Shown: positions 3,729-39,001 of the stretch, in pieces
How the letters are laid out: each line of letters begins with the position of its first letter
How positions within the stretch are numbered: position 1 is the stretch's first letter
Source of the DNA: a virus
IMG/VR virus record: IMGVR_UViG_3300037322_000310
Coordinates: 1 to 39,389 of that record
DNA length: 39,389 nt
Strand: one strand, 5' to 3'
Made by a program: the position numbers and the translations under genes
The notes under the pieces: model-generated
Databases searched by the model: none
What the model was told of the DNA's origin: nothing
The model's input: the letters and a program-made list of their open reading frames with translations, nothing else

Positions 3729-5359
3729 GCGTGGAATCTTCCCTTGTTGAGCGTGATGATCGTTCGCTTCCCGTTCGGGTATGTGATGATGTGACTCTGC
3801 GACCACGAAGACGGGCCCTTGTTGTAACCGAGGTCCAATTTCCCAGAGACACCGCCAACGTAGGCACCGTCACGAATGGCGGGGCTGTGGGTGTGTCCGG
3901 TGTTCGACTTCCGGCCGGATCGGCTGATTGCCAGTGGCGAGCCACGCGAACCGTTCGGACCAAGGTGGCCGTGCATCCCGCATTCGATGTCGCCGCAAAT
4001 GATGAACGACTGATCTTCGTTGCAGAACACAGCGTCCTCAGGTGTTCCCATCTCACGCATGACTTGCTGAAACACATCCGGCGACTGGTTACCCGACTGC
4101 ATCTGTGTGTAGAGCCACTTCTGGCAACTCAGGAAGAACAGCGCGTTCTCCGGATCGTCCCGGTAGTCAGCCGTCTTGAGCCACTTTAGTAGTGCTTGAT
4201 CGTGGTTAGATTCCACGATGACTGACGTGCAGTCTTCCCGGTGAACCTGCTTGATGAACGCAGCGCAGCCCTTCAACGCCAACTGGACGTTGTTGTTCTG
4301 TCCGCCACGAGTGTGCGCGGCAAACCGGAAGTGGTGGTCCTTGATGTTGTGGTGATTACGCGGTGAGAAATCACTGAGGTCGTGGAAGAACTCATACTTT
4401 GGACGCAGGCTGTAAATCAGTGGCAGCGGGCGAGGGTCTTCCGGGTCTTGGAAGTTCTTAATATCCCATGCTTCCTGCGCGGACACATCGTAGCCCCATG
4501 TCAGCTTAGCAACTTCTGGGTCCAGCTTTTCGTGGTGGATGTCACCGTAACTGATGGCTTCCACTCGGTGGTTGGTGGTTACCCCTTGGTTGGTGATATA
4601 CCGATCGAGATCGTAGAACGAGCCATTCTCCAGATCGGTGGACAGCAGATGGCGGCAATAGGTCGCACCGTCCGGAGTCATCTCGACCAATACAGCACCA
4701 ATCTGGTGGTGGAAGGTTGCCTTGATGCCTGCCTTCTTTCGGACGTAGTTCGGTAGAGTGATCGAGCCAGTGGTCATCAACTGCTTGGCCCGCTCGTGCT
4801 TCATGGTCGCGACCGATTCCAACTGGACTTTCGGATGCGGGAAGATGCCCCAGCGAGCGCGGGTGTAGGTAGCGAAACCAGACAGCGGGGTGACCGCAGT
4901 CGGAAGTGTGTTCATTTCACCGCAGAAATCAACTTCGTCACCCAGCCGCACGCGGTCGTGGACGATGAAGTCATCAATGGAGGGATGGAATCCGACCTTG
5001 AGTGAACGGGTGTCGTGATCCTCAAACAGTTTCTTGCTATAGGTGAAACCGGAAACAATGATCTCACACTCACCAAGCCAGTGAGCATAGACGTTGAGTG
5101 CATCCCAGAAGTCCTGATGAATGTCTGAGCAGTCTTGTGCCGAAGTCAGGATGAAGAAGCGGTTATGTGCCAGAGGCTCATAGACAGTCGGGCGTAGTGG
5201 TCGGTTCGAGGTGAACACGAACTCGATCTGCTCCCCAAGGTCTTCCTGCGCTGTAATGTCGCGCTTCATGCGGTAGCGAAGTGTAGATTCTGCGATGTTG
5301 AGGGCGCGAGCAGCCGGGCGGATTCCGCCGTGCTGGGCAACCAGTTCAAGATATTCCAT
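3725..5359 (-). CDS. Metallophosphoesterase with N-terminal HTH, T5 A1-like
   Basis: 544 aa. Residues 8-33 read as a helix-turn-helix (GGIRPAARALNIAESTLRYR). The C-terminal half has the calcineurin/Mre11-type metal motifs: GDIHHEKLD (272-280), ESNHD (383-387), GMHGH (461-465) and GHTHSP (488-493). Such enzymes are manganese-dependent nucleases or phosphatases. The combination and length recall the A1 ('DNA transfer') proteins of T5-like phages, which are needed for host DNA breakdown; that link is from memory and inference. ATG 5359 follows GAGG. Lies between the methyltransferase and small genes in the early-looking operon. Confidence 0.75.
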   Translation of the reverse strand: MEYLELVAQHGGIRPAARALNIAESTLRYRMKRDITAQEDLGEQIEFVFTSNRPLRPTVYEPLAHNRFFILTSAQDCSDIHQDFWDALNVYAHWLGECEIIVSGFTYSKKLFEDHDTRSLKVGFHPSIDDFIVHDRVRLGDEVDFCGEMNTLPTAVTPLSGFATYTRARWGIFPHPKVQLESVATMKHERAKQLMTTGSITLPNYVRKKAGIKATFHHQIGAVLVEMTPDGATYCRHLLSTDLENGSFYDLDRYITNQGVTTNHRVEAISYGDIHHEKLDPEVAKLTWGYDVSAQEAWDIKNFQDPEDPRPLPLIYSLRPKYEFFHDLSDFSPRNHHNIKDHHFRFAAHTRGGQNNNVQLALKGCAAFIKQVHREDCTSVIVESNHDQALLKWLKTADYRDDPENALFFLSCQKWLYTQMQSGNQSPDVFQQVMREMGTPEDAVFCNEDQSFIICGDIECGMHGHLGPNGSRGSPLAISRSGRKSNTGHTHSPAIRDGAYVGGVSGKLDLGYNKGPSSWSQSHIITYPNGKRTIITLNKGRFHA

Positions 5360-13749: not shown

Positions 13750-14157
13750 GACGGAATACCAGCCTGATGGCGACAGTGTGAGGCAACTCACATAAAGGGG
13801 GTAAGGTCACATAACCCCGCCGACTTCGGTCGGTCAACTCAGGCAAGTGCAGTCAATCCCGCGAGGGGTTCTTCACCGGGGTCACCCGACTGGAGAAACT
13901 GCCAGACAGATAGAGGTCCTGTAGGGGATAAGGGAACGGCCGACGGTGGTTCCCAAAAGGAGGGCTTGGCGGCCCTTGGCCTCTCGCCAAACTGTTTGGT
14001 CACATGACAAAGCACAAGGTCACAAGTTCGAGGCTTAGCGGCCAAGGGCGGTGATCAGTTTCTCAGGGTTCACATCCTGTTTGACGATCTTGGTAGCCCT
14101 TAGCAGGGTGACGGATATGAGGCGACTAGCATTCCTTTGGCGGAAACGTCACGGGAA

Positions 14158-15231
14158 CTAGGTGATAGCTCGTCTCGGTGGCTTGCACAATCTAGCTCAG
14201 CGGTAGAGCAGCGGACTTATAATCCGATGGTCGAAGGTTCAATCCCTTTGGTTGTTATAAAACGCAAAGATTGTCACGACTGCATGTGAAAGACGCCTAA
14301 TGCCGTAGGGTTTACCCAATGCGGCCCGACCTGATCTCGCAAGGTGATGGTTGGTTGGTGGAAGAAGTTTCGTTGGGCCCGCAAGCCCTTAATGGCTGGA
14401 GACAGTCAACGGGATCGCAACTGCCGAATATCATGCAGTGTCACCGCTAATGCCAGCGGTCCCGTGAGAACCGGGAAAAATAGGCGGCGTTGATCCGGAA
14501 CTAGGCTACCGCAAGGGGCTTGGTGGATAAGTTGGCAAGGTGACTCGCAAGGTCACTGTAATCCAGCGAATGACGGATCGTAGTAGGTGTAATCTCAGCC
14601 TGCTCTTATTCACGACTTATTGCGGCTCAGGGATGCATCTACGCCCCGGTTAGTTGGTTGCAAACAGCAGCAGGAAGATGGTAAGAGTGTTGCTAGGTGA
14701 CGCTCGATGTGACGAACCGCCGCAGTGCTCGGCTTAGTAGGACGAAAAATTACCTGATCCGCAGTAAGTTGTGAGTCGGTTTCTACATAGGCCCAGCAAA
14801 GGAGGTTAGCTACCTTCTCCTCGGTGCCCGCAGGTCAGGTCGATCCCAGCTACTCGTATGCAGACGGATCGTCGAAGCGCTAGGTCCAGTAACGTCGAGC
14901 CGTGGCTTGGTGCATTGGGAGTCGCTGCAAACCCGCTGGGTCTTTGTAGACATCGATTTCACTCGTAATAAAGCCCTTCTTGCTAGACACGCAACTTAGC
15001 GTGCTGGTTAATTAACACTAGGTTGGAAAGTCTTCGGTTAGTGATCTTAGGCGGCTTTGAAGGGCCTTATTACAAGTGATTTATTTGGCAGGTGGTTGTC
15101 GCACTGGATGGTTGTGGGTCTGACACATAATCGTCGTAAGTGTTCCGGGAGGATTTAGGCAACACGGTCTACGTGGTGTGACTTGATCGCGCATCACTGT
15201 GTGCTGTGGGGGTTCGACTCCCTCCACCTAG
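14158..15231 (+). other. Long-range tRNA-like closure in the giant RNA
   Basis: CTAGGTG at 14158-14164, followed by a D-arm-like ATAGCTC region, can pair perfectly with CACCTAG at 15225-15231. The latter sits directly after a textbook T-arm (GGGGG, TTCGACT, CCCTC; 15208-15224). The geometry is that of a tRNA acceptor stem plus T-arm with about 1 kb inserted, as in tmRNA. A second CTAGGTGA lies at 14693. No CCA follows (CTACC). Could be chance or a structural mimic. Confidence 0.4.
14186..14257 (+). tRNA. tRNA-like element, Ile(UAU) anticodon, no CCA
   Basis: Canonical D-arm (TAGCTCAGCGGTAGAGC), anticodon loop CTTATAA (UAU, reads AUA), T-arm GAAGG-TTCAATC-CCTTT and acceptor CACAATC/GGTTGTT with one mismatch. 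No CCA is encoded (ATAA follows) and the anticodon stem has a mismatch, so it may be a structural tRNA mimic within the giant RNA rather than a working tRNA. Confidence 0.55.
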
Positions 15232-16198: not shown

Positions 16199-16274
16199 GC
16201 CAGTGTAGCTCAGCGGTAGAGCAGGAGGCTCATAACCTCAAGGTCGTTGGTTCGAGTCCAACTATCTGGCACCA
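16199..16274 (+). tRNA. tRNA with CAU anticodon (Met or Ile2)
   Basis: GCCAGTG...ATCTGGC plus ACCA, anticodon loop CTCATAA, T-arm GTTGG-TTCGAGT-CCAAC. Two mismatches at the inner end of the acceptor stem. It lacks the GGG/CCC anticodon stem of initiators. It may be elongator Met, or Ile2 read after lysidine modification. Confidence 0.88.
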
Positions 16275-16329
16275 TTTCGAACCGTCTCGTTGAGACGCGT
16301 CTAAGCCGGAGTAATTAACCGGCGTGTGC

Positions 16330-16427
16330 GGGACGGTTGTAGAACGAGGAGGTCGCCGGTTCGAATCCGGCCATGGGGCACGCCCCCGTGTAGCTCAGCG
16401 GTTAGAGCGCCTTGTCAGTTTCGTCCC
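16330..16427 (+). tRNA. Circularly permuted tRNA gene, anticodon unassigned
   Basis: The 3' half comes first: anticodon-stem strand CGAGG (16345), AGGTC, T-arm GCCGG-TTCGAAT-CCGGC, acceptor strand CATGGGG (16372-16378). After only five bases (CACGC) comes the 5' half: acceptor CCCCGTG (16384-16390), TAGCTCAGCGGTTAGAGC D-arm, anticodon strand CCTTG (16410-16414). Acceptor strands pair over 7 bp (one G-U) and anticodon strands over 5-6 bp. The flanks GGGACG (16330) and CGTCCC (16422) also pair, extending the anticodon stem past a small internal loop. CCA is not encoded. The loop sequence after joining cannot be fixed, so the amino acid is open. Confidence 0.75.
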
Positions 16428-16463
16428 CGGCATCCGTAAAATCGGATGGGACAAAGAGTTTGT

Positions 16464-16539
16464 TGGTGATTAGCTCATTCAGGAGAGCGCCTGTTTTACA
16501 AGCAGGAGGTAGCAGGGGCAGAGCCTGCATCACCAACCA
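16464..16539 (+). tRNA. tRNA-Val(UAC) with GGCAGAG T-loop
   Basis: Acceptor TGGTGAT/ATCACCA plus ACCA, D-arm GCTC-ATTCAGGA-GAGC, anticodon loop TTTACAA, T-stem GCAGG/CCTGC enclosing GGCAGAG instead of the near-universal TTCRANY. The same loop occurs in the tmRNA here. Confidence 0.88.
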
Positions 16540-16618: not shown

Positions 16619-16763
16619 GTTTGAATAGGCTGTAATGGCCGAAACGCGGGGATTAGTCACCCGTAAGAGTGAGACCAAAAGGCCGAAACGTCGCTGGTGG
16701 ATGAGTTGACGACTCGCACTCCCAGTTAGAATAGTAGGTTGAGGTTTCACTACAAGTTTATGT
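16619..16763 (+). other. Gap of 145 bases, structured, no gene seen
   Basis: Contains GGCCGAAACG twice (around 16639 and 16681) and several short hairpins (for example CGGG...CCCG). No ORF with a ribosome site and no tRNA fold found. A hammerhead ribozyme core was looked for and not found. Confidence 0.4.
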
Positions 16764-16847
16764 TCGGCGGTGACAGAGTGGTAATGTGCCCGGCTGTTAA
16801 CCGGAGTCCCCGAAAGGGCGGAGGTTCGAACCCTCCCTGCCGAGCCA
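16764..16847 (+). tRNA. tRNA-Asn(GUU) with long variable arm
   Basis: Acceptor TCGGCGG/CTGCCGA with U1-A72 and G73 as expected for Asn, encoded GCCA, anticodon loop CTGTTAA. The variable region is 15 bases (CCCC-GAAA-GGG hairpin), a class II feature not normal for Asn. Confidence 0.88.
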
Positions 16848-21477: not shown

Positions 21478-21513
21478 TCAGCTCAGAAAATTCGAAGCAC
21501 TCGAAATTTTAAG

Positions 21514-21542
21514 TTGACAGTGATGGGCGAATCGCTTATTAT
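21514..21542 (+). promoter_or_regulatory. tmRNA promoter
   Basis: TTGACA (21514-21519), 17 bp, TATTAT (21537-21542), with AATTTTAAG upstream. Spacer holds GCGA-A-TCGC. Predicted start about 21549. Confidence 0.75.
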
Positions 21543-21548
21543 TCTCCT

Positions 21549-21923
21549 CGTCAAGTGCTTCGGCACGAAGACTATGGTCGTAGAAGGCCATCGAAGTTGA
21601 ACGGAGACGCGGGGGCAGAGCCCGCCGCCTCCACCATCGCTTCCGAGCTGCGAGGCTCAGAACTTCGAAGACACGGCGGTAACCAACCCGCAGGGCCTCG
21701 GAAGCGTTGATGGGGGCGAATTAGGATCGATCCGTAAGACCGATGTGGAGAAGCGCCCCGTTTAGATACCGCTCGTTATGCGGATCAAATTCATCAACTG
21801 TCAACGACAATGATGTGGTCGTCGCCCGCGAAGAGATTCGTCTCGCCGCGTAAGCGACAAAATCCCTAGGGCTTCACACCCTTAGGTGGCGCGTGGTCCC
21901 GAGCGTAGCAACAGTTTCGGGAC
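21549..21923 (+). ncRNA. ssrA: Circularly permuted two-piece tmRNA
   Basis: The acceptor piece ends with T-arm GCGGG-GGCAGAG-CCCGC, CGCCTCC and ACCA (to 21636). A spacer closed by CGCTTCCGAG/CTCGGAAGCG follows, then the coding piece from GGGGGCG (21712), which pairs with CGCCTCC including the alanine-type G3-U70. The tag frame 21800-21853 starts at a GTC codon and reads VNDNDVVVAREEIRLAA then stop; the alphaproteobacterial NDN and terminal LAA are kept. The resume codon is Val, not the usual Ala. Ends at the terminator stem 21896-21923 plus a U run. Rescues stalled ribosomes with host SmpB. Confidence 0.9.
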
Positions 21924-21934
21924 AACATCTTTTT
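21896..21934 (+). terminator. tmRNA terminator
   Basis: GTCCCGA / TCGGGAC stem followed by AACATCTTTTT. Confidence 0.75.
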
Positions 21935-22525: not shown

Positions 22526-22972
22526 ATGACAACCATTGCTTATCGATCGGGCCTTCTGGCCGCTGATACCTTGATCTCCTACAGTAGCATCACCAATGGT
22601 TCTCGCAAGAAGATCGCTGAGTGTGGTCGCTACACGGTGGCCCTTGCTGGTATGGCGTGGATTCGAAAACCACTGGAACAGTGGTGCGAGGATGGTTGTC
22701 CAGAAGACAACGTTCCCCAGCCATTGATCGACAACGGTAGCGAGTTCGCTGCCCTCATCATTGACAACAAGACCGGCGAACTCTTTGAGTTCGACAATGG
22801 TTATCTCATTCCCATCTGCGCCGATTACACCGCAATCGGCTCAGGTGGTTTGCTCGCATTGGGTGCCATGGCCCATGGAGCAACCGCTGAGGAAGCCGTT
22901 CTGGCTGCCTCCAAACACGATAAGAACACAGGCGGCCCGGTGACCATCCTGTCCCTTCCAATCGCAGCATAA
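22526..22972 (+). CDS. HslV-like Ntn hydrolase (proteasome beta-fold peptidase)
   Basis: 148 aa. Starts MTTIAYRSGLLAADT, so removal of Met1 exposes a catalytic Thr as in HslV and proteasome beta subunits. The C-terminal part TAIGSGGLLALGAMAHGATA and EAVLAASKHDKNTGGPV matches the family, including the AIGSGG turn. No ATPase partner (HslU) is seen in the window, so it may act alone or with host HslU. GGAG ribosome site. Co-transcribed with the primase, eight bases downstream. Confidence 0.82.
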   Translation: MTTIAYRSGLLAADTLISYSSITNGSRKKIAECGRYTVALAGMAWIRKPLEQWCEDGCPEDNVPQPLIDNGSEFAALIIDNKTGELFEFDNGYLIPICADYTAIGSGGLLALGAMAHGATAEEAVLAASKHDKNTGGPVTILSLPIAA

Positions 22973-36236: not shown

Positions 36237-36265
36237 GATTTATCCGGAATGTATTACGTTGTCAA
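36237..36265 (-). promoter_or_regulatory. Promoter of the double-HTH operon
   Basis: Minus strand TTGACA (36265-36260), 17 bp, TAAATC (36242-36237). The -35 overlaps the stop codon of the upstream NAMPT gene. Confidence 0.6.
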
Positions 36266-37728
36266 CCCTGATAAACACGACGCCAGTCGGCGGCGTTTTT
36301 ACGAACCTGCTCCCATTTCTGGGTGTTGAGTAACACCGAATTTGCATAGACCACAACCAGATGATTCGTCCGTCCGTTAATGTCGCACTGGCTAATCGTC
36401 TGGAGCTTTCCAGAATCGTCCGCCCTGACCACAGCGAAACGACCAGCCTTGGATGCCTTACTGGGGTCAGTCGCCACTTCTTTGCGGACATCGCGGGGCA
36501 TCCCTGCGATCTGCACATAGGAAGTCTTCATGGCGAACCGGTGAGTGTCACGCTCTGCCTCGTGGACCAACAGCCCACCACCCGATCCGAACACCAGATT
36601 GTCCACTGACCACTTGTGGTAGGTCACACGCTGGAGGATGCGACGAAGACTATCCTCGTTGATCCCGTCGCCCTGAATGAGACGAACGTAATCAGGCAGG
36701 ACCCGGTAGCCCTTGTCGTTCACCGTCCAACCAACGAGTCGGCCGATTAGGTCAAGGCAGTGGACTACATTGATGATCGGGTCACCGGAGTCAGGCCGCA
36801 CCACCAACCGCATGTTCGACGCCTTGAGCCGTTCGAGCAGCCCGCCTTCACCGGCGGGCTTAAGCCACATACCGATGGCAGTATCCTGATCGTAGGTATC
36901 AATCACGACAGACACAGGGTAGCGCCCGCCGCCGAGGAACTGCTTGTCGCCGTGGACTTCCAGAATGCGTTCGAAGAACGCCATCTCGTTCTCCCGGCCC
37001 CACGACGTGGTGACCGAGTGTTCGGTGGCAGGAATCGAGAAGCCCGGCATTCCATCGAACTGGTAAGCGTGCTTGGCGAACCGGATGCCCATCAGGTTGT
37101 CAGTCACCTGAAAGTTCACGAGGTGGGCCATACCACCGATCGCAGCAGCTTCGGTCGATTGTGCGCCACGAGCGCCGAAGTCCACCATCAGCCAGTCAGC
37201 CAGTTCAGGCGTCCCACTTTCCGTCAGGTAATTCTCCAGCAGATTGTGCCAGCGCATCGAACGAGTCGCGATCGTGGTCGGATACCAAACAGCACGGAGC
37301 AACATGGTCTCGACGTAGGCAGCGATGCCAGCACATTCTTCATCGGTGGATTCCACCGTCACCAGCACCGTTCCCTGATCGACCACAGTTCCTTCCGGGA
37401 GGGCCCGGACTAGGACGGGCAGATAGCCAGCGTGTTTCTCGACTATCCGATCCCACACCACACGATTGAACGGGACACCGTGCGCGGAGAGTTCCGCTTC
37501 GGCTTCATCGATCATTGCAGTCGTGACCTGCTGCAACAGGTAATACCGCAGCGCATATTGCAGGCCGAAGAACTGGACGTGGGTGAACGCACCACCCTTA
37601 CGGGCTTCGATATAGCCGTAGCTCTTCTCGAACTCAGGGTGTTCGAACGTCCAGTGTGTCGCCTTGTAGGTGTCGGCGTTGAGGATCGGCTGGGTCAACA
37701 GCGTTCCGAGGTCATTGATGAATTGCAT
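36262..37728 (-). CDS. nadV: Nicotinamide phosphoribosyltransferase (NAMPT)
   Basis: 488 aa, family length. Makes NMN from nicotinamide and PRPP. Diagnostic segments: NADTYKATHW (N-terminus), VDFGARGAQS, PATEHSVTTSWG with the catalytic His, RPDSGDP, IQGDGI and FGSGGGLL. Start ATG overlaps the upstream stop (TAATG). It sits downstream of an NMN adenylyltransferase-Nudix gene, so the two form an NAD+ rebuilding route, known in phages as NARP2, that overcomes NAD-depleting immunity. Confidence 0.96.
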   Translation of the reverse strand: MQFINDLGTLLTQPILNADTYKATHWTFEHPEFEKSYGYIEARKGGAFTHVQFFGLQYALRYYLLQQVTTAMIDEAEAELSAHGVPFNRVVWDRIVEKHAGYLPVLVRALPEGTVVDQGTVLVTVESTDEECAGIAAYVETMLLRAVWYPTTIATRSMRWHNLLENYLTESGTPELADWLMVDFGARGAQSTEAAAIGGMAHLVNFQVTDNLMGIRFAKHAYQFDGMPGFSIPATEHSVTTSWGRENEMAFFERILEVHGDKQFLGGGRYPVSVVIDTYDQDTAIGMWLKPAGEGGLLERLKASNMRLVVRPDSGDPIINVVHCLDLIGRLVGWTVNDKGYRVLPDYVRLIQGDGINEDSLRRILQRVTYHKWSVDNLVFGSGGGLLVHEAERDTHRFAMKTSYVQIAGMPRDVRKEVATDPSKASKAGRFAVVRADDSGKLQTISQCDINGRTNHLVVVYANSVLLNTQKWEQVRKNAADWRRVYQG

Positions 37729-37919
37729 TAGACAATCTCCACGCAGTGAGTGCAGGCAGCGACATCCGGAAGTCCCATACTATCACAATCAATGTGTAGG
37801 GCCACCTTGGTTCCGTCGGTGAAAAGAAACTCGATGTTGTTACGGCTTGTCGCATCCATCTTTATGATCGTCTTACCAACGAAAAGATGAAGGGCTTTAG
37901 AAATCGGAACTTCCATCAT
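37728..37919 (-). CDS. Small hypothetical protein between NAD genes
   Basis: 63 aa, ATG overlapping the NMNAT stop (ATGA). Strand-rich (TIIKMDATSRNNIEFLFTDG) with CTHC near the end. No family recognised; coupled translation with the two NAD genes suggests a related role. Confidence 0.65.
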   Translation of the reverse strand: MMEVPISKALHLFVGKTIIKMDATSRNNIEFLFTDGTKVALHIDCDSMGLPDVAACTHCVEIV

Positions 37920-39001
37920 AGCACCGAGTTGAAACGAGTGGCGAAGTGATCGATGACGTTGAAGTGGTCTTCGAACATCATCTCACGGGTTACTTCATCG
38001 ATCGGCCACCAACGAGCCACGCTGGCATCGTCCTGTCCCCGGACGAGGGGCAGGTCCATGCTTAACGAAGTAAGATCGAAACCGTAGGCAACCGAGATCG
38101 TCCGCTTCCGGGTCGAGCGCCACGGATTGTCCAACAACTTCTCACCCTTACAGGCAAGCGCGAGAATCGCGAGATTCACGTCGATGTCAGTCTCTTCGAC
38201 CAGTTCCCGTAGCGCAGCTTGTTCGAAGGTCTCGTCCATCCCAACATGACCGCCGGGTAAGGCCCACAGACCCTCACCGGGCATCTGGCCGCGACGCACC
38301 AGTAACACGTGCCCGGCCATGATCACACAGGCATCGGCAGCCGTGAAATAGCGAGGATAGGGTTCTTGCGAGAACTGGTCGAGATAATAATTCATGAAAT
38401 GATATTCCCGGCGCATCTGATTGAAGCGCTCCGTGCTTACCCATTCCCGAAGGAAGCTGAAAGTCCCACGAGGGAAGATCGTCTCTCCAGTCTGCTGCTG
38501 AAACCGGACAAGCGTTTCGACCGCGTTGTCCTCTTCGGGGATGTCGTAGAGAATCTTCCGCAGCTTCGTGGCATCCAACGTCCCGTGAAGTTCCGGGCTG
38601 GCCGGCGTCACGCTGATCGATCCCCACTGGGGGAACAGAGTGAGATAGTAGGACGACCCATCCTTCGAATATCCGATCAGGGCGATTTTCGGATCAGAGA
38701 TCGAGATCGCCTTGGCCTGATCGGTGACGCATTTTTGGACAGCAGCTACCCAGCGGTTGTCATTCTCCTGATCTGCAATGCCGAGAATGAACACACGGTC
38801 CTGCTCGGTGGGAGTCAGGCTGGCCCGGATCATTTCACGAACCTCTTCGAAGGTGAAGGGGTTACGGAAATTGATCGGTTCACCAACGGAGCCAACAATG
38901 ACGAAAAGATATTGGGCCTTCTGGAGAGCCTGCTTGATCACAGTCATGTGACCAGCGTGGAAAGGGCGCATACGCCCGGCAAAAACGCAGATGTCATACA
39001 T
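37916..39001 (-). CDS. Bifunctional NMN adenylyltransferase / Nudix hydrolase
   Basis: 361 aa. Residues 1-170: nucleotidyltransferase fold with GRMRPFHAGHM (HxGH at 15-18) and ISISDP...GYSKDGSSYY, as in NadM-type enzymes; converts NMN plus ATP to NAD+. Residues about 220-361: Nudix domain with ALPGGHVGMDETFEQAALRE followed by LVEETDI; the box's last Gly is Asp. The fused Nudix domain may hydrolyse ADP-ribose, the product of NADases. AAGGAGACAG ribosome site. Confidence 0.94.
   Translation of the reverse strand: MYDICVFAGRMRPFHAGHMTVIKQALQKAQYLFVIVGSVGEPINFRNPFTFEEVREMIRASLTPTEQDRVFILGIADQENDNRWVAAVQKCVTDQAKAISISDPKIALIGYSKDGSSYYLTLFPQWGSISVTPASPELHGTLDATKLRKILYDIPEEDNAVETLVRFQQQTGETIFPRGTFSFLREWVSTERFNQMRREYHFMNYYLDQFSQEPYPRYFTAADACVIMAGHVLLVRRGQMPGEGLWALPGGHVGMDETFEQAALRELVEETDIDVNLAILALACKGEKLLDNPWRSTRKRTISVAYGFDLTSLSMDLPLVRGQDDASVARWWPIDEVTREMMFEDHFNVIDHFATRFNSVL

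What the first reader, a model, noticed from the sequence alone, without database searches (positions are those of the whole stretch)
16330..16427. Circularly permuted tRNA gene in a phage
A complete T-arm plus acceptor strand comes five bases before the matching acceptor strand plus D-arm. Both the acceptor pairs (CCCCGTG/CATGGGG) and the split anticodon stem (CCTTG/CGAGG) fit, and the flanks GGGACG/CGTCCC extend the stem past a small internal loop (a 3-nt TAG bulge, 4 pairs CAGT/GTTG, a 2-nt TT bulge) that resembles a bulge-helix-bulge. Permuted tRNAs are known from red algae and some archaea; I know of none in phages.
Basis: partly seen in the sequence, partly recalled or inferred. Interest (0 to 1): 0.9.

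Follow-up and report, generated by a model that had tools for sequence, protein, structure and literature searches.

The report
Phage tRNA-mimic RNA, Y RNA type
The "permuted tRNA gene" is a real, conserved RNA structure in a phage, but it is built like the tRNA-mimicking part of bacterial Y RNAs (YrlA) rather than a working tRNA, and it belongs to a form found mainly in phages where no Ro partner protein was detected.

Summary
The core observation holds. Window 16345-16414 encodes a tRNA cloverleaf in circularly permuted order: T arm, acceptor stem (7/7 paired), five-base loop, D arm, closed by a 5/5 anticodon stem. Compensatory changes in relatives show that the structure is selected. The flank helix and bulge-helix-bulge are not supported: GGGACG belongs to an upstream hairpin and CGTCCC to a downstream one, and the flank helix is absent from a syntenic relative. 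Nothing points to a decoding tRNA: no encoded CCA, no conserved anticodon loop, no splicing endonuclease. The architecture is that of the effector module of YrlA, the tRNA-mimicking bacterial Y RNA; Rfam aligns 16330-16430 end to end with YrlA, though at 39.7 bits against a cut-off of 69. In a viral scan, 30 of 48 contigs with such a module also encode a Ro protein. Phage YrlA is already in the literature. The window and its searched relatives lack a detectable Ro gene, and its form, with a complete anticodon stem, is mostly Ro-less (11/18 Ro-less contigs against 1/30 Ro-bearing, p about 1e-5). I call it a Ro-orphan variant of the YrlA effector module, probably a tRNA decoy or adaptor. The mechanism is inferred.

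The parts
16280..16338 (+).
   Evidence: folds; nearly invariant in 7 relatives; L162 folds into a comparable nested hairpin with different sequence
16345..16349 (+). 3' strand of the anticodon-stem analogue (CGAGG)
   Evidence: pairs 5/5 with 16410-16414; two two-sided changes in syntenic L162
16355..16371 (+). T arm (GCCGG TTCGAAT CCGGC)
   Evidence: T54-A58 and C56 kept in 14/14 modules
16372..16390 (+). acceptor-stem analogue CATGGGG / CCCCGTG capped by the 5-nt loop CACGC, no CCA
   Evidence: 7/7 pairs; compensatory changes in L008, L162, Rey and others
16391..16408 (+). U8, A9 and D arm (GCTC AGCGGTTA GAGC) with G18G19
   Evidence: U8-A14 in 14/14 modules; 15-48 is G-C in 13/14 and A-U in 1/14
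16410..16414 (+). 5' strand of the anticodon-stem analogue (CCTTG)
16330..16430 (+). stretch aligned end to end with Rfam RF02553 YrlA (39.7 bits, E 1.7e-7, below the gathering score of 69)
16423..16452 (+).
   Evidence: same hairpin with changed pairs in XM05, L02, L023, L026 (no module at this site) and in L162
26346..27587 (+). RtcB RNA ligase gene (context, not shown to act on the module)
   Evidence: PF01139 E 1.5e-123

Best explanation
The locus encodes a structured non-coding RNA within the phage's tRNA array: a 5' hairpin, a tRNA-mimic module, and a 3' hairpin. The module is a cloverleaf in circularly permuted order whose acceptor end is capped by a short loop and whose anticodon stem opens into the flanks, so it has the tRNA elbow but no anticodon loop and no free CCA end. 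This is the architecture of the effector module of YrlA-type bacterial Y RNAs. In many phages that module occurs with a Ro protein gene; here and in a related subset it stands without a detectable Ro. Shown: the module, its selection through compensatory change, the strong tie of such modules to Ro in other phages, and the absence of a detected Ro gene in the window and its relatives. Inferred: it is transcribed and acts as a tRNA mimic bound by proteins that recognise the tRNA elbow, either as a decoy that tRNA-cutting nucleases cannot cut in an anticodon loop, or as an adaptor for an RNA-processing enzyme such as PNPase, which YrlA is reported to tether.
For: Rfam YrlA alignment of 16330-16430; other phage modules including Rey also match YrlA. 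Covariation within the syntenic family and across lineages. tRNA elbow contacts kept in all 14 modules compared. Of 61 viral junctions with no tRNA call on either side, 49 have at least 6/7 acceptor pairs, while 0 of 45 tandem tRNA junctions reach 7/7. 30 of 48 contigs with a module encode a Ro protein (phrog_850) and 24 a TROVE hit. In bacterial genomes, two of three pattern hits lie in 8-kb loci that hold a TROVE gene. A perfect anticodon stem occurs in 11/18 Ro-less contigs and 1/30 Ro-bearing ones, Fisher p 1.4e-5. The decoy idea was proposed for Salmonella YrlA, whose tRNA-like domain was not cut when tRNAs were (PMC7790460).
Against: The YrlA score is below the curated threshold, and ordinary tRNA junctions in these phages reach about 30 bits. 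The Ro-binding basal stem is not demonstrated here. No expression or binding data exist. Close relatives XM05 and L02 do without the module at this site, so it is dispensable.
Confidence: 0.62

Rival explanations
1. A complete Ro-binding Y RNA: the GGGACG/CGTCCC helix with its internal loop is the Ro-binding stem, and a host-encoded or very diverged Ro protein binds it.
For: The Rfam alignment covers the whole model including the basal stem. If excised alone, the stretch folds with the basal stem at probability near 1, and in L014 and L008 the stem is only 1.1 kcal/mol from the best fold. Olaya, which encodes Ro, has similarly short YrlA copies.
Against: Neither TROVE nor phrog_850 was found in the window or its relatives, including a 176-kb contig. 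Both flank strands belong to separately kept hairpins, and the basal stem is missing in syntenic L162. The GGTTACTTC stretch common in Ro-bearing phages is absent.
Confidence: 0.18
2. A permuted tRNA that is circularised, for example by the phage RtcB, and cut to a functional tRNA.
For: All four stems of a tRNA are present in permuted order. The phage and several module-bearing phages encode RtcB.
Against: No conserved anticodon loop, no NCCA here, no splicing endonuclease, tandem copies without loop space. RtcB is kept in relatives without the module and is rare among module-bearing contigs, 4/48.
Confidence: 0.07
3. A processing element of the polycistronic tRNA transcript: a tRNA-like fold that draws RNase P or 3' processing enzymes and is cut in the acceptor loop.
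For: Sits among tRNA genes in the window family, cluster M phages, BAjuniper and others; RNase P recognises acceptor plus T stem (general knowledge).
Against: The capped acceptor loop and the link to Ro in other phages are not explained; relatives that lack the module keep a similar tRNA array.
Confidence: 0.09
4. A relic of recombination between tandem tRNA genes, without function.
For: Permuted order could arise by duplication and loss in tRNA arrays (inference); the module is absent from some relatives.
Against: Five two-sided compensatory changes between the window and L162, and 49 viral junctions with at least 6/7 acceptor pairing.
Confidence: 0.04

Closest known systems
YrlA, bacterial Y RNA-like A (Rfam RF02553)
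   Same: T arm, loop-capped acceptor helix and D arm in the same permuted order; tRNA elbow contacts; reported in phages
   Different: No detectable Ro gene, complete 5-bp anticodon stem, basal Ro-binding stem not supported, score below the Rfam threshold, flanked by two separate hairpins in a tRNA array
rsr-yrlBA-rtcBA RNA-repair operon of Salmonella (PMC7790460)
   Same: A YrlA-type RNA and RtcB occur in one genome
   Different: Here RtcB lies about 10 kb away and no Rsr was found; RtcA and RtcR were not sought
Circularly permuted tRNA genes of algae and archaea (PMC3978253)
   Same: 3' half precedes 5' half with a short intervening sequence
   Different: No strict bulge-helix-bulge, no splicing endonuclease, no anticodon loop, no sign of a mature tRNA
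Two-piece (permuted) tmRNA of alphaproteobacteria
   Same: Permuted order around the acceptor stem; this phage also carries one at 21510-21924
   Different: Has a tagging reading frame and no canonical D stem (general knowledge); a different RNA

Membership tests
YrlA bacterial Y RNA | tRNA-like module: T arm, capped acceptor helix, D arm in permuted order | tested here: met
YrlA bacterial Y RNA | score above the curated Rfam threshold (69 bits) | tested here: not met
   39.7 bits; Olaya, next to its Ro gene, reaches only 50
YrlA bacterial Y RNA | basal stem joining the two ends, Ro-binding | tested here: inconclusive
   Forms if the stretch is folded alone, probability about 0.04 in context in the window, 0.23-0.80 in L014 and L008, absent in L162
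YrlA bacterial Y RNA | Ro/Rsr partner encoded with it | tested here: not met
   No TROVE or phrog_850 in the window or relatives; Ro in the host could not be tested
YrlA bacterial Y RNA | binds Rsr and PNPase | not testable with these tools
   needs biochemistry
Circularly permuted tRNA gene | 3' half upstream of 5' half with all stems paired | tested here: met
Circularly permuted tRNA gene | bulge-helix-bulge at the ends | tested here: not met
   bulges of 3 and 2 nt around a helix with two G.U pairs; not kept in L014 or L162; both strands belong to other hairpins
Circularly permuted tRNA gene | anticodon loop with U33 once joined | tested here: not met
   U at 33 in 9/18 modules, C in the window
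Circularly permuted tRNA gene | splicing endonuclease available | tested here: not met
   PF01974 absent in 12 phage records; host not tested
Circularly permuted tRNA gene | circular intermediate and mature tRNA | not testable with these tools
   needs RNA from infected cells

The most novel reading that the evidence does not exclude
Phages carry a Ro-independent class of circularly permuted tRNA mimics, with a complete anticodon stem but no anticodon loop, placed in tRNA arrays and sometimes in tandem, which act as uncuttable decoys against tRNA-cleaving host defences.
Probability: 0.27. Interest if true: 0.75.

Novelty: new variant of a known kind. Interest (0 to 1): 0.5.

Why it matters
YrlA RNAs have been studied as part of Ro particles. 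If a Ro-less class with its own structural signature is real and spread over unrelated phages, the tRNA-mimic module has a use of its own, and phage tRNA arrays become the place to test it. It also warns that tRNA-gene annotation of phages passes over these modules, or reads them as odd tRNAs.

Tried and rejected
Permuted tRNA with bulge-helix-bulge: rejected on covariation of the two flanking hairpins and on syntenic L162. Natural permuted intron-exon arrangement: considered for Rey and L025; Rfam gave no group I intron there. Junction of two neighbouring ordinary tRNAs: true for the Skinny/SirSheldon Arg-His hits and for L060, not for the window. Conserved RtcB partnership: RtcB is kept without the module and is rare among module-bearing contigs. 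Relatives of a virus record cannot be drawn, so Ro in the host lineage was not tested. The main papers on YrlA (Chen 2014, Sim and Wolin 2018, Wang 2018) are not held, so their content is cited only through other papers.

Full report
WHAT IS THERE. Between tRNA-Met (16199-16274) and a tRNA with anticodon TAC, probably tRNA-Val (16464-16536), the window holds CGAGG-aggtc-GCCGG TTCGAAT CCGGC-CATGGGG-cacgc-CCCCGTG-TA-GCTC AGCGGTTA GAGC-G-CCTTG at 16345-16414. A scanner written for permuted cloverleaves finds this and no other place in the 39-kb window. All stems pair. Halves drawn from different ordinary tRNAs of the window reach this quality once in 600 combinations, so the window by itself leaves about a 5% chance over its junctions; the relatives decide.

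RELATIVES. The window is related to Erythrobacter phages XM05 and vB_EliS-L02. They lack the module at this site. Six IMG/VR contigs carry it at the same site; they keep 7/7 acceptor pairs with either CATGGGG/CCCCGTG or CACCGGG/TCCGGTG. L162, a syntenic relative at about 66-74% identity over its longer aligned stretches, has CGGGA...TCCTG for the anticodon stem and CGGGGCC/GGCCGCG for the acceptor: five pairs changed on both sides, one broken. Mycobacteriophage Rey has the module with 7/7 and 5/5 pairs and other bases; others are in GenevaB15, Reindeer, Phabba, BAjuniper (two in tandem), Percival, Vibrio phage 1.244.A, and L025 (two in tandem).

FLANKS. GGGACGGTT pairs with AACCGTC upstream in a hairpin 16280-16338, and GTCCC pairs with GGGAC downstream in a hairpin 16423-16452. 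The downstream hairpin is kept with changed pairs in XM05, L02, L023 and L026, which have no module at this site. L162 has a comparable nested upstream hairpin of different sequence and no GGGACG. Forced into the whole segment of the window, the flank helix costs 2.9 kcal/mol relative to the best fold and its pairs have probability about 0.04; in L014 and L008 the cost is 1.1 kcal/mol and probabilities are 0.23-0.80, so energy alone does not settle it there. It forms readily if 16330-16427 is cut out first. A strict bulge-helix-bulge (two 3-nt bulges around a 4-bp helix, PMC3978253) is not present.

WHAT IT RESEMBLES. Rfam aligns 16330-16430 with YrlA, model positions 1-114, at 39.7 bits, E 1.7e-7; the same family rings in Rey and L025 and in other phages. 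The curated threshold is 69, and ordinary tRNA junctions in these phages reach about 30, so the score alone proves little. The link to Y RNAs rests on more. In Xanthomonas phage Olaya, YrlA copies lie directly before a Ro gene. In bacterial genomes, two of three hits of the same DNA pattern lie in 8-kb loci that hold a TROVE gene; one of these has two YrlA copies in a row. Of 48 contigs with such modules, 30 encode phrog_850 (29 with E at or below 6.5e-31, one weak at 1.2e-5) and 24 TROVE.

A SUBCLASS WITHOUT RO. No Ro was detected in the window or its relatives, including contigs of 176, 164 and 163 kb; the same holds for Rey and other cluster M phages, BAjuniper, Percival and Vibrio 1.244.A. 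Among the 48 contigs, the anticodon stem is perfect in 11 of 18 without Ro and in 1 of 30 with Ro (Fisher p 1.4e-5). Ro-bearing copies commonly carry GGTTACTTC and an anticodon-arm-like hairpin on the 5' side, and CTAAA or the like after the D stem; the window does not. The contigs may be fragments and are not independent, so the p-value is indicative.

WHY NOT A tRNA. All 14 compared modules keep U8-A14, a 15-48 pair (G-C in 13, A-U in one), T54-A58, C56 and G18G19, so the elbow is tRNA-like. The decoding end is not: the would-be position 33 is U in 9 of 18, NCCA follows the acceptor in 2 of 14, tandem copies leave 1-2 nt between anticodon stems, and no splicing endonuclease was found. RtcB is present but also in relatives without the module, and in only 4 of 48 module-bearing contigs.

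MECHANISM. Published work describes YrlA as a stem that holds the Ro protein Rsr and a tRNA-like domain that binds PNPase (PMC8394870), and suggests that the domain might inhibit an anticodon nuclease, since it was not cut when tRNAs were (PMC7790460). With no Ro detected and no anticodon loop, a decoy or adaptor role is the most economical reading. It is an inference; no expression, binding or phenotype data bear on it.

NOVELTY. Phage YrlA is in the literature (PMC7765460, PMC12282133), and TROVE proteins as well as RtcB are described in jumbo phages (PMC7824862). What I did not find described is a Ro-less class with a complete anticodon stem in phage tRNA arrays; the main YrlA papers could not be read here, so this could be known.

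Noticed in passing
window 16632-16764: An unannotated structured RNA between tRNA-Ile and tRNA-Asn, kept in six relatives: 28 predicted pairs, 10 with changes on both sides, a 9-bp terminal stem followed by ACCA in most (ACAA in the window), no Rfam match.
   Followed up: partly
window 16423-16452: A small hairpin with a one-sided CGGC bulge kept at the same site in phages with and without the module.
   Followed up: partly
window 14119-14601: GOLLD RNA (157.6 bits) with a tRNA-Ile(tat) inside; GOLLD also lies downstream of the module in Rey.
   Followed up: no
window 21510-21924: Two-piece, alphaproteobacterial-type tmRNA in the phage (the relative L025 has one too).
   Followed up: no
window 36262-38998, - strand: Nicotinamide phosphoribosyl transferase and a cytidyltransferase/NUDIX protein next to each other, which suggests NAD metabolism.
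   Followed up: no
L004 about 1910-1830 (- strand); L008 about 4616-4694: XM05 and the L008-type phages carry a degenerate tRNA-like sequence (GATCCAG...CTGGACCA, GACCCAG...CTGGGACG) near the place of the module.
   Followed up: no
L003 1440-2140: Xanthomonas phage Olaya has three YrlA-like copies, and a hairpin among them without a tRNA module, directly upstream of its Ro gene; none annotated.
   Followed up: partly
window 22526-22972: HslV-family peptidase-like protein (phrog_1040) downstream of the tRNA array, kept in relatives.
   Followed up: no
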